DNA from: Devosia sp. 67-54
GTDB taxonomy: Bacteria > Pseudomonadota > Alphaproteobacteria > Rhizobiales > Devosiaceae
DNA length: 64,000 bases
NCBI RefSeq assembly: GCF_001899075.1
Contig: NZ_MKVA01000005.1
Span: 124,001-188,000, forward strand
Direction: 5' to 3'
The translations under genes were made by a program, and so were the position numbers. Below are positions 29,747-50,113 of the stretch, piece by piece; positions within the stretch are counted from its first letter, which is position 1, and the number at the start of each line of letters is the position of its first letter. The notes beneath the pieces are model-generated. The model searched no databases. It had not been told where the DNA came from and worked only from the letters and a program-made list of their open reading frames with translations.

Positions 29747-30000
29747 CCCCTCACCCGCCTCGCTGCGCGAGGCACCCTCTCCCCGGAGGGGAGAGGGGAG
29801 GCCGGGGTGACTGCAGGATTCTCTTGCGCTCTGGCCGAGCGATCCCGAGGGGGCTCGTTCGGCCAACCGCCGGGCTCCCCGGAGGGGAGAGGGGAGGCCG
29901 GGGTGACTGCGGGATTCTCTTGCGCTCTGGCCGAGCGATCCCGAGGGGGCTCGTTCGGCCAACCGCCGGGGGCTCCCCGGAGGGGAGAGGGGAGGTCGGG
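29747..30000. repeat. Compound palindromic repeat block
   Basis: The block holds CTCGCTGCGCGAG, then three CCCGGAGGGGAGAGGGGAGG units, alternating with two copies (29829 and 29925) of a 42-base hairpin that starts CTCTGGCCGAGCGATCCCGA and ends TCGTTCGGCCAACCGC. The unit is duplicated head to tail with a period of about 96 bases. It fills the 355-base gap between two leftward genes. Confidence 0.8.
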
Positions 30001-41100: not shown

Positions 41101-41526
41101 TTACGACGCGATGTATTCCTTGAGGGCCAGGGCTTCCTGCTCGGTTTCCTCGATCTTGCGCTTCACCACGTCGCCGATGGAGACGATGCCGACCAGCTCG
41201 CCATTGTCGACGACGGGCAGGTGGCGGATGCGGCGCTCGGTCATGCGCTCCATGACCTCGTCGAGCGAGGCGCGGCGGCCCATGGTGACGACATCCCTGG
41301 TCATCACCTCGCCGACCTTGCGGGTGGCGAGGCCGGCCCAGTCGCTGCCGAGGTGGCGGACGATGTCGCGCTCGCTGAGGATGCCGGCGACCTTGCCGCG
41401 GTCGGTGACGACGACGGCGCCGATGCGGCGGCTGTTCAGGATCTCGACCGCCTCGGCGATGGTGGCGCCGGTCGGTACGGTGTGCACCGCCCGGCCCTTG
41501 GATTGAAGGATATTCTCGACTTGCAT
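41101..41526 (-). CDS. Tandem CBS-domain protein
   Basis: A 141-residue protein made of two CBS motifs: TGATIAEAVEILNSRRIGAV through VAGILSERDIVRHLG, and MTRDVVTMGRRASLDEVMER through HLPVVDNGELVGIVSIGDVV. Paired CBS domains bind adenosine nucleotides and act as energy sensors. The stand-alone form is widespread in alphaproteobacteria with unknown partners. Confidence 0.92.
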   Translation of the reverse strand: MQVENILQSKGRAVHTVPTGATIAEAVEILNSRRIGAVVVTDRGKVAGILSERDIVRHLGSDWAGLATRKVGEVMTRDVVTMGRRASLDEVMERMTERRIRHLPVVDNGELVGIVSIGDVVKRKIEETEQEALALKEYIAS

Positions 41527-44770: not shown

Positions 44771-44880
44771 AAAATGAAAAGGCCTCGCTCGAGGGGATGA
44801 GCGAGGCCTTCAGGTCATCGGCCGAAGCCGGCGACCACGGAGACGCGGCCAAGGAGGAGGAGAGGCCGCAGTTCCCTTGG
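44771..44880 (-). ncRNA. CcsR/cuckoo-like small RNA C
   Basis: A minus-strand transcript inferred from a promoter at 44914-44886 and a 12-bp terminator (AAGGCCTCGCTC/GAGCGAGGCCTT, 44810-44779) followed by TTTTCATTTT. Upstream of the terminator a hairpin GCGGCC/GGCCGC (44869-44845) presents CCTCCTCC in its loop, complementary to a Shine-Dalgarno sequence. This plan is that of the alphaproteobacterial CCUCCUCCC-motif RNAs, here with a single clear loop. Length about 110 bases. Confidence 0.7.
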
Positions 44881-44885
44881 CGCTG

Positions 44886-44914
44886 CTTATGCGGGGCGGC
44901 GCCGAGTCCGACAA
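44886..44914 (-). promoter_or_regulatory. Promoter candidate for small RNA C
   Basis: TTGTCG, 17 bases, CATAAG on the minus strand, placing the RNA start near 44880. Confidence 0.45.
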
Positions 44915-44967
44915 ACGCGAAGTCGGAAGGCGAGCTATGCGGTGATGGTGGTGCTGACTGAGGGGAA

Positions 44968-45042
44968 GGCCCCCTCACCTGGCTTGCTAGGCTCGCGACG
45001 CTCGCCAAGCGCGCCACCCTCTCCCCGGAGGGGCGAGGGGAC
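44968..45042. repeat. Intergenic palindromic element (CCCTCTCCCC family)
   Basis: GGCCCCCTCACCTGGCTTGC, GCGACGCTCGCCAAGCGCGC and CCCTCTCCCCGGAGGGGCGA form the same kind of compound hairpin as at 6361 and 29747. It lies between small RNAs B and C. Confidence 0.6.
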
Positions 45043-45068
45043 CGACTGCGGCGTTTGGGGATGCGGGT

Positions 45069-45241
45069 AAAAAAAGGGCTCCATCCGAAGATGGAGCCCA
45101 TCGAAAGTGGGGCAAACGGACGAGGGAGGAGGAAACGCCGTTTGCCGTTGGACCAAAGCCGAGGGAGGAGGTTCGGCTCAAATCCGGTGTCGGGAAACAG
45201 CCGGACCGAGGGAGGAGGATTCGGTCGGGCGTCTCAGCGAC
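45069..45241 (-). ncRNA. CcsR/cuckoo-like small RNA B with three anti-Shine-Dalgarno loops
   Basis: Reading the minus strand, three consecutive hairpins each expose CCTCCTCCC in the loop. Their stems are GACCGA/TCGGTC (45226-45204), AGCCGA/TCGGCT (45178-45157) and GGCAAACGG/CCGTTTGCC (45146-45111). A 10-bp terminator follows with a TTCG loop (GGGCTCCATC/GATGGAGCCC, 45099-45076) and seven T. CCUCCUCCC loops are the hallmark of CcsR RNAs of Rhodobacter and the cuckoo family of rhizobia, which usually have two such loops. It probably acts by pairing with ribosome sites or binding proteins, under stress control. Confidence 0.85.
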
Positions 45242-45247
45242 AGGCTG

Positions 45248-45277
45248 AATATGTGCGCGACCACCCATTCCAGCAAG
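45248..45277 (-). promoter_or_regulatory. RpoH-like promoter candidate for small RNA B
   Basis: Minus strand CTTGCT, 16 bases, CACATATT. CTTG with a C-AT-T type -10 resembles heat-shock sigma promoters of alphaproteobacteria, the class known to drive CcsR RNAs. The implied start is near 45241. Confidence 0.45.
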
Positions 45278-45375
45278 GCAGGTGCTGACATGTCAGCTAT
45301 GCACCTCGCGCAGGGAAGGTCAGCCTGATTGACCCAAACCCAAACGTTTTGGATGGGCATTTCCGCGGTGGCGGA

Positions 45376-45484
45376 AACAATAAGGCCCTGCTCGAGGGGA
45401 GAGCAGGGCCAAAGTTTGAAAGAGGAAGACCCTCTCGCAAAGGGACGCGGCAAGCGAGGAGGGAGAGAAGTGCTCGCAACGTCC
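45376..45484 (-). ncRNA. CcsR/cuckoo-like small RNA A
   Basis: A minus-strand RNA with a hairpin GCGAG/CTCGC (45477-45454) whose loop and 3' side carry CCCTCCTCG, a second small hairpin AGAGG/CCTCT (45435-45421), and a 10-bp terminator GGCCCTGCTC/GAGCAGGGCC (45410-45384) followed by TTATTGTTT. The terminator loop TCCCCTC is shared with RNA C, which suggests duplication. The anti-Shine-Dalgarno loop is less perfect than in RNA B. Confidence 0.65.
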
Positions 45485-45490
45485 CCGTTC

Positions 45491-45519
45491 GTATAGGTCC
45501 GTTCGGTTACGTGCCTCAA
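45491..45519 (-). promoter_or_regulatory. Promoter candidate for small RNA A
   Basis: Minus strand TTGAGG, exactly 17 bases, CTATAC; the RNA start is near 45484. It is the strongest of the three promoter matches. Confidence 0.55.
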
Positions 45520-45626
45520 CCGGGGCGGCCGCATGGCTGGCATGCGGCCGGCGCATGACCGTTAGGATGCTAGCGATCGGGGTTCGAGCGGGGCAGGTGG
45601 CCGCTCCCCGAGTCGTTTCCTCTGTG

Positions 45627-45806
45627 CTCTGGCCGAGCGATCCCGAGAGGGCTCGTTCGGCCAACCGCTGTGCTCTGGCCGAGCGATCCCGAGAGGGCTC
45701 GTTCGGCCAACCGCTGTGCTCTGGCCGAGCGATCCCGAGAGGGCTCGTTCGGCCAACCGCTGTGCTCTGGCCGAGCGATCCCGGGAGGGCTCGTTCGGCC
45801 AACCGC
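45627..45806. repeat. Four tandem 46-bp hairpin repeats
   Basis: Copies start at 45627, 45673, 45719 and 45765. Each is CTCTGGCCGAGCGATCCCGA, GAGGGC (GGAGGGC in the last), TCGTTCGGCCAACCGC, joined by TGTG. The unit folds into a stem of about 15 bp with 13 matches. Long minus-strand frames across it are artefacts of the period. It lies after corA and before small RNA A. Confidence 0.9.
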
Positions 45807-45812
45807 GGGGGG

Positions 45813-46805
45813 CTAGAGCCAGCCCTTGCGCTTGAAGAAGAGGTAGGGGAGCACGGCGGAGATGATCATCAGCACGATGGCCAGCGGGTAGCCGAAGGGC
45901 AGGTGCAATTCGGGCATGACGTCGAAATTCATGCCGTAGGCCGAGGCGACGAGGGTGGGCGGCAGGAAGACCACGGCGGCGACCGAGAAGATCTTGATGA
46001 TCTGGTTCTGCTCGAGGTTGATCAGGCCGAGCGTGGCGTCGAGCAGGAAGTTGATCTTGCTGCTGAGGAAGGCGGCGTGGTCGGAGAGGGCGGCGGCGTC
46101 GCGCTGCAGCACCTTGAGCTCCTGGCGCAGCTCGCGGGCGGTCTTGGCGTTGCCGTTGTCGTAGGTCTGGTGGAAGCTCGACAGGCGGGCGATGGAGACC
46201 AGGCTTTCACGAGCGAGGGTGAGAACGTCGCCCTTCTTGCCGATGCGCTCGATGATCTCCTGCAGATCGCGCGCCTTGCGGGTGACGTTGCGGGTCTTGT
46301 TGCGGAACACTTCGCGCGAAATCTGGTCGATCTCGTCGCCGGTGGTTTCGAGCAGCTGCGCCAGGCGGTCGATGATGGCCTCGATCAGGCCGAGCATGAC
46401 CTTTTCGCCGGAGGTGTAGACGTTGTTGGTGGGGCGGCTGACCAGGCGCTCGAACAGGCGGAACGGCTTGGGGTCGGCGTAGCGCACCGTGACCAGCAGA
46501 TTGTGGCGCAGAACGAAGGTGATCGGGGTCTTTTGCGGCTCGTCGGTCTCGGAGTTGAACAGCGCGGTGATGGTCATGAACTCGGCCCCGTCCTCGTTGT
46601 AGAGGCGGGCGCTGGGCTCGATGTCGTCCATCTCGGCGCGGGTCGGGATGTCGATGCCGAGGTGCGATTCGACGAAGGCGTCCTCGGCCTTGGTCGGATC
46701 GGTGAGGCTGAACCAGATGGCCTCGCCGCCCATCAGATCGGGCGCGGCCATATCCACATCGGTGGCGACGAGGCGATCGTCCTTACGGATATATGCACGC
46801 AGCAT
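45813..46805 (-). CDS. corA: CorA-type magnesium transporter
   Basis: The 330-residue protein has a large cytoplasmic N-terminal domain and two C-terminal helices. The signature YGMNF follows the first helix (VVFLPPTLVASAYGMNFDVM), and the second is YPLAIVLMIISAVLPYLFFK. The GMN motif defines the selectivity filter of the pentameric magnesium channel. AAGGAG precedes the ATG. The 205-base upstream region has no recognisable magnesium riboswitch. Confidence 0.93.
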   Translation of the reverse strand: MLRAYIRKDDRLVATDVDMAAPDLMGGEAIWFSLTDPTKAEDAFVESHLGIDIPTRAEMDDIEPSARLYNEDGAEFMTITALFNSETDEPQKTPITFVLRHNLLVTVRYADPKPFRLFERLVSRPTNNVYTSGEKVMLGLIEAIIDRLAQLLETTGDEIDQISREVFRNKTRNVTRKARDLQEIIERIGKKGDVLTLARESLVSIARLSSFHQTYDNGNAKTARELRQELKVLQRDAAALSDHAAFLSSKINFLLDATLGLINLEQNQIIKIFSVAAVVFLPPTLVASAYGMNFDVMPELHLPFGYPLAIVLMIISAVLPYLFFKRKGWL

Positions 46806-49219: not shown

Positions 49220-50113
49220 TCAGAACTGCCACTCGCGGGCCTTGCCGACGAGGAAATCGCGGAAGACGCCGACGCGCTTGCTGTTCTTGAGCGCCGGCGG
49301 ATAGACGAAATAGGCCTCGTAGGCGGGGAGCTCGACGCCGGTGAGCACGCGCTTCAGGCCGGTTTCGACCTCGGTGACGTAGTCGGGCAGCATGGCGATG
49401 CCGATGCCGGCGCGGCAGGCCTGCAGCATGCCGAAGATGGCGTTGACCTTCATGGCGGAGCGGCGCGGCGAAGAATCGGGGCGGCCGAGGCGCTCGATGT
49501 AGTTGATGTCGCCCAGATAGGACGGCACCGGGTCGCCGAAGGTGATGATGCGGTGGTTGTCGAGATCCTCGAGGGTCGAAGGCTCGCCGTACTGGTTGAG
49601 GTAGTCGAGCGACAGATAGAAGTGGTTGTGCACCGTGAACAGCTTGCGCTGGATCATCTCGGACTGGTTCGGCCGGTGCAGGCGGATGGCGACGTCGGCC
49701 TCGCGCATGGCGAGGTCGAGCTCGGCGTCGTTGAGCTTAATCTCGATCTGGATGTCGGGATAAAGCAGCAGGAATTCGTGGATGCGGCTCGACAGCCAGG
49801 TGGAGCCGATGCCCACGGTGGTGGTGACGATGAGCTGGCCGATGGGGATGTCCTGGCTCTCGGACATCTGCGATTCGACCTGCTGCAATTCGGCATGCAT
49901 GCGGTGGGCGGTGCGGAACAGGTGCTCGCCCACCTCGGTCAGCACCAGGCCGCGGGCGTGGCGGATGAACAGCTTGAGGTTGAGATCGTCCTCCAGCGCC
50001 GAAATCTGCCGCGACACGGCCGACTGGCTCATGTTCAGCTTTTCGGCCGCATGGGTGAAGCTCCCCGATTCCGCCGCGGTGTGGAATATGCGGAGCTTGT
50101 CCCAGTCGAGCAT
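49220..50113 (-). CDS. lsrB: LysR-family regulator, LsrB/VtlR type
   Basis: A 297-residue LysR regulator. The N-terminus MLDWDKLRIFHTAAESGSFT, AAEKLNMSQSAVSRQISALE and KLFIRHARGLVLTEVGEHLF closely resembles LsrB of Sinorhizobium and VtlR of Brucella, which control envelope, redox and virulence functions and small RNA genes. It follows trxB by 3 bases on the same strand, the conserved context for this regulator. The naming rests on similarity recalled, not on a search. Confidence 0.85.
   Translation of the reverse strand: MLDWDKLRIFHTAAESGSFTHAAEKLNMSQSAVSRQISALEDDLNLKLFIRHARGLVLTEVGEHLFRTAHRMHAELQQVESQMSESQDIPIGQLIVTTTVGIGSTWLSSRIHEFLLLYPDIQIEIKLNDAELDLAMREADVAIRLHRPNQSEMIQRKLFTVHNHFYLSLDYLNQYGEPSTLEDLDNHRIITFGDPVPSYLGDINYIERLGRPDSSPRRSAMKVNAIFGMLQACRAGIGIAMLPDYVTEVETGLKRVLTGVELPAYEAYFVYPPALKNSKRVGVFRDFLVGKAREWQF

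What the first reader, a model, noticed from the sequence alone, without database searches (positions are those of the whole stretch)
44771..45484. Three tandem CCUCCUCCC-loop small RNAs with separate promoters and terminators
The minus strand holds three units, each with a promoter-like pair at 16-17 bases, one to three hairpins with CCTCCTCC(C)-like loops, and a strong intrinsic terminator. This fits the CcsR RNAs of Rhodobacter and cuckoo RNAs of rhizobia, which pair with or mimic Shine-Dalgarno partners under stress. Here they lie between corA and an unknown protein gene rather than beside a DUF1127 gene, and they are spaced by a REP element, so this is a divergent arrangement of the family.
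Basis: partly seen in the sequence, partly recalled or inferred. Interest (0 to 1): 0.88.

Follow-up and report, generated by a model that had tools for sequence, protein, structure and literature searches.

The report
LsrB-linked array of sibling small RNAs
Downstream of the gene for the stress regulator LsrB, this Devosia-like bacterium carries three sibling small-RNA genes with the same promoter layout and with exposed loops that could cover ribosome-binding sites; the arrangement is conserved in its family and links three known small-RNA families.

Summary
In detail: three small-RNA-like units on the minus strand (U1 45484-45376, U2 45241-45068, U3 about 44880-44771), each with a 17-bp-spaced promoter pair, hairpins with C-rich anti-Shine-Dalgarno (aSD) loops and a terminator. 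Stems show compensatory changes across Devosiaceae; a U2 model hits 126 of 136 family genomes. The interpretation needs correcting. The conserved neighbour is not corA or a DUF1127 gene but lsrB/vtlR (49220-50113), which lies upstream and codirectional in 29 of 37 family genomes checked. All three promoters share one cassette: a box like the published LsrB site GCAT-N3-TG-N3-T, then TTG at +26 and the -10 at +49, nearly the geometry found before lsrB-adjacent AbcR-type RNAs in 5 of 19 lsrB loci of other families. So this looks like an expanded lsrB-abcR locus: U1 AbcR-like, U3 ar14-like, U2 a triple-loop cuckoo/CcsR-like RNA. Likely function (inferred): LsrB switches on siblings whose loops pair with Shine-Dalgarno regions of transport and metabolic mRNAs. 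No Rfam gathering score is met in this window; there are no expression or binding data.

The parts
45531..45545 (-). U1 LsrB-type box, near-palindrome GCATGCCAGCCATGC; read forward it starts 49 bp before the -10 with one mismatch to GCAT-N3-TG-N3-T; read on the + strand (45531-45543) it is an exact match
   Evidence: consensus from PMC8844928 (passage)
45491..45519 (-). U1 promoter TTGAGG-N17-CTATAC
   Evidence: relatives aligned
45376..45484 (-). U1 small RNA, AbcR-like layout: first hairpin with C-rich loop (45477-45454), second hairpin, terminator 45410-45384
   Evidence: (52.8 bits to a model of relatives' U1); start inferred from the -10
45290..45302 (-). U2 LsrB-type box GCATAGCTGACAT, exact consensus, starts 49 bp before the -10
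45248..45276 (-). U2 promoter TTGCTG-N17-CATATT
45068..45241 (-). U2 small RNA: three hairpins with CCUCCUCCC in the loops (45226-45204, 45179-45150, 45146-45111), a GUCG/CGAC stem round the first, terminator 45099-45076
   Evidence: start inferred from the -10
44928..44940 (-). U3 LsrB-type box GCATAGCTCGCCT, one mismatch to the consensus, starts 49 bp before the -10
44886..44914 (-). U3 promoter TTGTCG-N17-CATAAG
   Evidence: relatives
44771..44880 (-). U3 small RNA, ar14-like: hairpin 44870-44844 with loop UCUCCUCCUCCUU, second hairpin, terminator 44810-44779 with loop AUCCCCUCG
   Evidence: (ar14 40.4 bits); start inferred from the -10
49220..50113 (-). lsrB/vtlR: LysR regulator, conserved upstream neighbour and proposed activator of the array
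   Evidence: PDB 9HH1, E 4.4e-109; 9HH1 is A. tumefaciens LsrB, passage
45010..45038 (-). REP-like dispersed repeat between U2 and U3, probably unrelated to function
45813..46805 (-). corA, between lsrB and the array in this genome
   Evidence: TIGR00383, 206.7 bits, cut-off 200.75

Best explanation
This is an expanded lsrB-abcR locus. LsrB, a redox-responsive LysR regulator encoded upstream, is proposed to bind a box starting 49 bp before the -10 of each of three sibling genes and so to switch on three (in some relatives four) separately terminated small RNAs. Each RNA displays C-rich anti-Shine-Dalgarno sequence in hairpin loops, and the loops pair with purine-rich Shine-Dalgarno regions of trans-encoded mRNAs and block initiation, as published for AbcR1/2 and NfeR1. 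U1 stands at the place of AbcR1 and resembles it, U3 resembles ar14/NfeR1, U2 is a triple-loop cuckoo/CcsR form. Shown by sequence comparison: units, terminators, compensatory stems, promoter cassette, position downstream of lsrB. Inferred: LsrB binding, transcription, mRNA pairing, target class.
For: lsrB upstream of and codirectional with the array in 29 of 37 family genomes. Box upstream of U1 in 11 of 24, U2 25 of 27, U3 14 of 24 arrays, against 0.012-0.025 per sequence in mononucleotide shuffles. In U2 a box starts exactly 49 bp before the -10 in 25 of 27; of 24 forward boxes listed for U1 (10) and U3 (14), 23 have TTG at +26. Own U1, U2 and U3 all show 26/49 spacing (coordinates). In 5 of 19 lsrB loci of other families the same box with TTG at +26 and a -10 at +49 or +50 precedes the lsrB-adjacent RNA, among them G058, whose RNA passes the Rfam ar15/AbcR cut-off with 127 bits. 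Published LsrB site in PabcR1 at -61 to -49 (PMC8844928, passage); LsrB activates NfeR1, whose aSD motifs silence mRNAs (PMC10746234, passages). Pairs with changes on both sides: 16 (U2), 13 (U3), 4 (U1), reached by 0, 0 and 8 of 500 shuffles. Siblings: the U1 model finds U3 (46.3 bits) and U2 (23.1) in the window, the U3 model finds U1 (45.2) and U2 (37.7), next window hit 20.9.
Against: No RNA or LsrB-binding data for these bacteria were available. The ar15 model has no match at E<=0.001 in any of 37 family genomes, so the AbcR link of U1 rests on position, promoter and layout. The U1 model hits lsrB-adjacent RNAs of other families only weakly (24.5 bits in L307, over its 3' half; 19.6 in L305; three more at 10.9-11.7) and hits ar14-type loci about as well (21.9 in L036, 19.9 in L035). 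The U2 and U3 models score ar14-type loci (29.8 and 25.3; 37.2 and 32.0) above the best lsrB-adjacent RNA (11.5; 22.0). Own U1 and U3 boxes have one mismatch in the forward reading; 13 of 24 U1 and 10 of 24 U3 lack the consensus. Own U1 has no clear second aSD. U3 of L228, L101 and L123 lacks an aSD loop in its first hairpin. RNAalifold on the wider U1 alignment predicts only the terminator. Target signal is weak: 3 of 10 scanned genes with GGAGGAG-type sites are solute-binding proteins, against one evident by eye among 15 control genes that were not scanned.
Confidence: 0.74

Rival explanations
1. CcsR/cuckoo RNAs under a stress sigma factor (RpoH) that lack the DUF1127 gene; the nearby lsrB is incidental.
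For: The U2 model hits 25 of 25 loci tried from Rhodobacterales and Rhizobiales, best 23.8-51 bits per locus, though these were chosen for a triple-loop pattern and their DUF1127 neighbourhood was not checked; U2 to CcsR1 32.5 bits; the U1 promoter resembles both the sigma-70 and the RpoH1 consensus quoted in PMC8844928 (passage).
Against: lsrB linkage in the family; LsrB-type box at fixed spacing; a promoter and terminator for each unit, whereas CcsR1-4 come from one precursor with ccaF1 under an RpoHI/RpoHII promoter (PMC10253847, passages).
Confidence: 0.15
2. The loops act mainly as decoys of the 16S rRNA tail and damp translation broadly, rather than choosing individual mRNAs.
For: Loops are near-identical and repeated while stems vary; the loop sequence complements the generic Shine-Dalgarno core.
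Against: Published relatives repress particular mRNAs through such loops (PMC10746234, PMC8844928, passages); only 61 GGAGGAG-spaced-ATG sites in the genome (13 for the reversed pattern), so a selective target set is possible.
Confidence: 0.09
3. Relics: a repeat-rich intergenic region with terminators and no function.
For: REP-like and 46-bp repeats in the same region; the strict promoter scan finds none.
Against: Compensatory changes, U2 in 126 of 136 family genomes, fixed promoter geometry.
Confidence: 0.02

Closest known systems
AbcR1/AbcR2 (alpha-r15, Rfam RF02345)
   Same: Position downstream of and codirectional with lsrB; LsrB-type box and promoter spacing; first hairpin with aSD loop, second hairpin, terminator; in several relatives a second aSD-like UUCCUCC linker.
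   Different: The ar15 model matches none of 37 family genomes; stems and terminator unlike; three or four units rather than the two of G058.
ar14 / NfeR1 (Rfam RF02344)
   Same: U3 fits this model best of Rfam (40.4 bits here, 54.9 in G018); NfeR1 has an LsrB-activated promoter and several aSD loops (PMC10746234, PMC7143759, passages).
   Different: Below the gathering score of 58.8 here; terminator loop AUCCCCUCG rather than an exact aSD; in five other-family genomes ar14-type hits lie beside DUF1127 genes.
CcsR1-4 / cuckoo RNAs (Rfam RF02791); SmelA075/SmelA099 models
   Same: U2: consecutive hairpins with exact CCUCCUCCC loops and variable stems (PMC3927594, passages).
   Different: No DUF1127 gene, own promoter and terminator per unit, lsrB-linked.
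MmgR/suhB (Rfam RF00519)
   Same: Weak match to U1 (29.3 bits, gathering 41).
   Different: The same model also matches AbcR of G058 (58.4 bits) and another locus of this genome (C8:191774, 29.2), so it does not discriminate.

Membership tests
AbcR (ar15, RF02345) | Rfam model at or above gathering score | tested here: not met
   0 of 37 family genomes at E<=0.001 (stricter filters that can lose weak matches)
AbcR (ar15, RF02345) | Gene beside lsrB/vtlR | tested here: met
   Downstream on the same strand in 29 of 37 family genomes; 3.7 kb away in this genome
AbcR (ar15, RF02345) | LsrB box at -61 to -49 | tested here: met
   U2 exact, U1 and U3 one mismatch, all starting 49 bp before the -10; start sites are predicted, not mapped
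AbcR (ar15, RF02345) | Two aSD motifs, loop CUCCUCCC and linker UUCCCCUC | tested here: inconclusive
   Own U1 loop CUCUCCCUCCUC, no clear linker motif; several relatives have UGUUCCUCCC
ar14 / NfeR1 (RF02344) | Rfam model at or above gathering score | tested here: not met
   U3 40.4, U2 31.3 bits against 58.8; one family genome passes, G033 with 62.2
ar14 / NfeR1 (RF02344) | Three hairpins, each with an aSD loop | tested here: not met
   U3 has one aSD hairpin and a CCCC-type terminator loop; U2 has three plus a separate terminator
CcsR1 / cuckoo | Rfam CcsR1 at or above gathering score | tested here: not met
   U2 32.5 bits against 65.3
CcsR1 / cuckoo | Repeated hairpins with CCUCCUCCC loops | tested here: met
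   U2, three hairpins
CcsR1 / cuckoo | DUF1127 gene beside the RNAs | tested here: not met
   Own listed DUF1127 hits at C5:623283 and C5:400117, array at C5:168771-169484; a third, weaker own hit was not listed
CcsR1 / cuckoo | RpoH-dependent stress induction | not testable with these tools
   needs RNA data
MmgR (RF00519) | Rfam model at or above gathering score | tested here: not met
   29.3 against 41

The most novel reading that the evidence does not exclude
AbcR, ar14/NfeR1 and cuckoo/CcsR RNAs are one superfamily that multiplies by tandem duplication of an LsrB-box promoter plus aSD hairpins at the lsrB locus, and the Devosiaceae array is a living intermediate: one regulator driving a graded set of one-, two- and three-loop siblings.
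Probability: 0.3. Interest if true: 0.72.

Novelty: new variant of a known kind. Interest (0 to 1): 0.6.

Why it matters
If right, it ties three separately named alphaproteobacterial small-RNA families to one regulator and one locus, gives a testable origin for the scattered aSD-loop RNAs, and offers a family of environmental bacteria in which sibling redundancy (why three or four copies?) can be studied under a single activator.

Tried and rejected
corA as the conserved partner: rejected, since in eight genomes the array follows lsrB within 419 nt, without room for corA. U1 as an MmgR: the suhB model also hits AbcR of G058 and a second locus in this genome, so not used. U1 as a formal ar15: no match. 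A third exact box in the genome (C5:500920) lies in what reads as a coding sequence (my reading of the frame) and was set aside. The exact 9-mer GGGAGGAGG as a target finder: 32 sites against 49 for the reversed pattern; of the 30 sites with loci, one is a persuasive gene start (L235, narG-like by recall of its sequence, not searched). Target class from GGAGGAG sites: 61 sites, 30 loci examined, 11 gene starts kept (at least 90 aa, fewer than 60 open codons upstream), 10 scanned, L357 left out; too few for a test. Coding potential: ORFs of 93, 121 and 525 aa overlap the units; not pursued.

Rows dropped: alignment A1 used 23 of 24 U1 (L016 left out); A3 20 of 24 U3 (L228, L101, L123 left out because they lack the aSD loop, L232 because it is divergent); A4 8 of 24 U1, chosen because they align well, so its pair counts are favourable. 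A2 used all 27 U2 gathered. The arrays gathered are those I could delimit; six outlying family loci (L221-L226) and L229, L230 were left out of the alignments and, and L107 too.

Full report
What is there. The minus strand of 45545-44771 holds three transcription-unit-like modules between corA and a gene of unknown function. U1, U2 and U3 each have a box, a -35/-10 pair with a 17-bp spacer, stem-loops and an intrinsic terminator. The minimum-free-energy folds leave the C-rich loops unpaired and are far more stable than shuffles: z -6.3, -7.8 and -5.8. The genome belongs with Devosia: G008, of the same genus in the tool's kinship, has its array on a contig with the length and hairpin coordinates of a record named Devosia sp. 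isolate Bin1. I call the tool's family f1 Devosiaceae on that ground; the tool does not name it.

More than chance. Rfam gives nothing at gathering scores in the whole window. Below them, in a 1.1-kb search, it gives ar14 for U3 (40.4 bits, E 8.6e-6), CcsR1 (32.5, 7.5e-6) and ar14 (31.3, 9.1e-4) for U2, and suhB/MmgR (29.3, 8.6e-4) for U1. A model of U1 from eight relatives, not including this genome, was searched against the window and 19 lsrB loci of other families: in the window it scores U1 52.8, U3 46.3 and U2 23.1 bits; the next window hit, a terminator-like fragment, has 17.5. The U3 model, which contains the own U3, scores U1 45.2 and U2 37.7, next 20.9. The three units are recognisable siblings, U1 and U3 above all.

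Conservation. In alignments of 27 U2, 20 of 24 U3 and 8 of 24 U1 the named structures form standard pairs in 93.8, 96.4 and 95.8 per cent of cells; 16, 13 and 4 pairs have changes on both sides, against shuffle means of 9.0, 6.5 and 2.0, and 0, 0 and 8 of 500 shuffles reach the observed number. Slid controls give 31-51 per cent paired. The measure 'further standard pair types' does not exceed shuffles in any of the three. The U2 model matches 126 of 136 genomes of the family at E <= 0.001. No U1 was seen beside U2 in G018 (L006) and no U3 in G005 (L007).

The neighbour that matters. The LysR gene at 49220-50113 matches PDB 9HH1 over its full length (E 4.4e-109), which is Agrobacterium tumefaciens LsrB (PMC11975290, passages). 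Among the 37 family genomes of the relatives set the array lies downstream of and codirectional with lsrB on one contig in 29 (my count). In three (G008, G012, G017) the two are on different contigs; in two (G013, G026) no lsrB was found at E <= 1e-60; in G025 the contig ends 134 nt after lsrB; in G027 nothing was seen in 3.7 kb; G036 has a U2 match whose place was not listed and only a 19.6-bit hit downstream of lsrB. In eight (G007, G016, G019, G020, G022, G028, G029, G031) the array's first aSD hairpin is 89-419 nt from the lsrB stop. In this genome U1's first hairpin is 3.7 kb from it, with corA and others between. In other families of the order, of 19 lsrB loci taken (of 20 genomes with a hit among 24), 11 have an aSD hairpin within 470 nt of lsrB by my finder and a twelfth (G050) by eye; in G058 there are two RNAs over the ar15/AbcR cut-off (127 and 119 bits). 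AbcR1 next to vtlR is published for Agrobacterium and Brucella (PMC8844928, passage).

The promoter cassette. The published LsrB consensus GCAT-N3-TG-N3-T lies at -61 to -49 of PabcR1 (PMC8844928, passage), and LsrB activates nfeR1 through TGCA-N6-GCAT at about -72 to -57 (PMC10746234, passages). Upstream of the Devosiaceae units the consensus occurs in 11 of 24 U1, 25 of 27 U2 and 14 of 24 U3, against 0.016, 0.025 and 0.012 per sequence in mononucleotide shuffles. In U2 a box begins exactly 49 bp before the -10 in 25 of 27. Of the 24 forward boxes listed for U1 and U3, 23 have TTG at +26, and the -10 follows at +48 or +49 in most. In this genome box, -35 and -10 begin at 45545/45519/45496, 45302/45276/45253 and 44940/44914/44891, that is 26 and 49 bp in all three; U2 is an exact box, U1 and U3 have one mismatch read forward. 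Five of 19 lsrB loci of other families (G044, G045, G055, G056, G058) show the box, TTG at +26 and a -10 at +49 (three) or +50 (two) before the lsrB-adjacent RNA; a sixth box hit (G046) does not. Exact GCATRGCTGRCAT occurs at three places in this genome, two of them here. With up to two mismatches the genome has 397 hits against 123 for the reversed control, so only close matches mean anything.

DUF1127. In five other-family genomes (G042, G045, G047, G050, G058) ar14-type hits lie within a few hundred bases of DUF1127 genes; in the family none of the listed DUF1127 hits is near an array, the nearest about 34 kb away in G031 (the weakest DUF1127 hits were not listed).

Which family. Position, promoter and layout of U1 are AbcR-like, but the ar15 model does not see it. 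U3 fits ar14 best. The U2 model finds all of 25 loci tried, of the 80 shown of 119 stretches with a triple TCCTCCTCCC pattern; that pattern favours a match, and their DUF1127 neighbourhood was not checked. In a set of 12 lsrB loci and 5 ar14-type loci of other families, the U2 model scores ar14-type loci 29.8 and 25.3 and the best lsrB-adjacent RNA 11.5, the U3 model 37.2 and 32.0 against 22.0, and the U1 model does not separate the kinds (21.9 and 19.9 against 24.5 and 19.6). So U2 and U3 look nearer to ar14/cuckoo RNAs, while U1 is undecided by sequence. I say the units work like these families and are related to them, and file them formally under none.

Mechanism. From published work on the relatives (aSD motifs pair with translation initiation regions; PMC10746234 and PMC8844928, passages) the best reading is LsrB-activated repression of mRNAs with strong Shine-Dalgarno sites. 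In this genome 61 sites read GGAGGAG, 4-9 bases, ATG (13 for the reversed pattern). Of 30 loci examined 11 look like gene starts; of 10 scanned, three are SBP_bac_1 solute-binding proteins, others include a PQQ dehydrogenase-type protein, 6-phosphogluconate dehydrogenase and the CBS protein at 41101-41526 in this window. This agrees with transport and sugar metabolism as the target class but proves nothing.

Literature. The two primary papers on cuckoo and CcsR RNAs that I asked for were not held. Of the papers cited I saw search listings and passages only. Searches for Devosia with sRNA (6 papers), Devosia/AbcR/VtlR/cuckoo (15 of 91 listed) and LsrB/tandem/aSD (8 of 44 listed) listed no account of this array by title or abstract; most subscription papers are not in the library.

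Verdict.

Noticed in passing
window 45619-45802: Four head-to-tail copies of a 46-bp unit between corA and U1; near copies at 29832, 29928 and 33988.
   Followed up: partly
L174:5441-5800 and L150:247-659 (coordinates on the reverse complement): Nine and eight consecutive aSD-loop hairpins ending in one terminator (Oryzibacter; a Proteobacteria MAG): extreme multi-loop forms.
   Followed up: no
L173:5179-6818: Ten similar C-rich hairpins at 173-186-nt spacing just upstream of the array in Devosia ureilytica.
   Followed up: no
L235 (G000:C3:249845): A narG-like gene start (by recall, not searched) carries the 9-base site GGGAGGAGG, a full complement of the U2 loops.
   Followed up: partly
L115, L118, L119, L146, L158, L171: The triple TCCTCCTCCC pattern also occurs in contigs labelled Acidimicrobiaceae, Lachnospiraceae, Hungatella, Acidobacteria, Clostridiales and Planctomycetota; chance, misbinning or coding repeats not distinguished.
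   Followed up: no
L228, L101, L123 (U3): In these Devosia U3 lacks the aSD loop of its first hairpin but keeps the AUCCCCUCG terminator loop.
   Followed up: no
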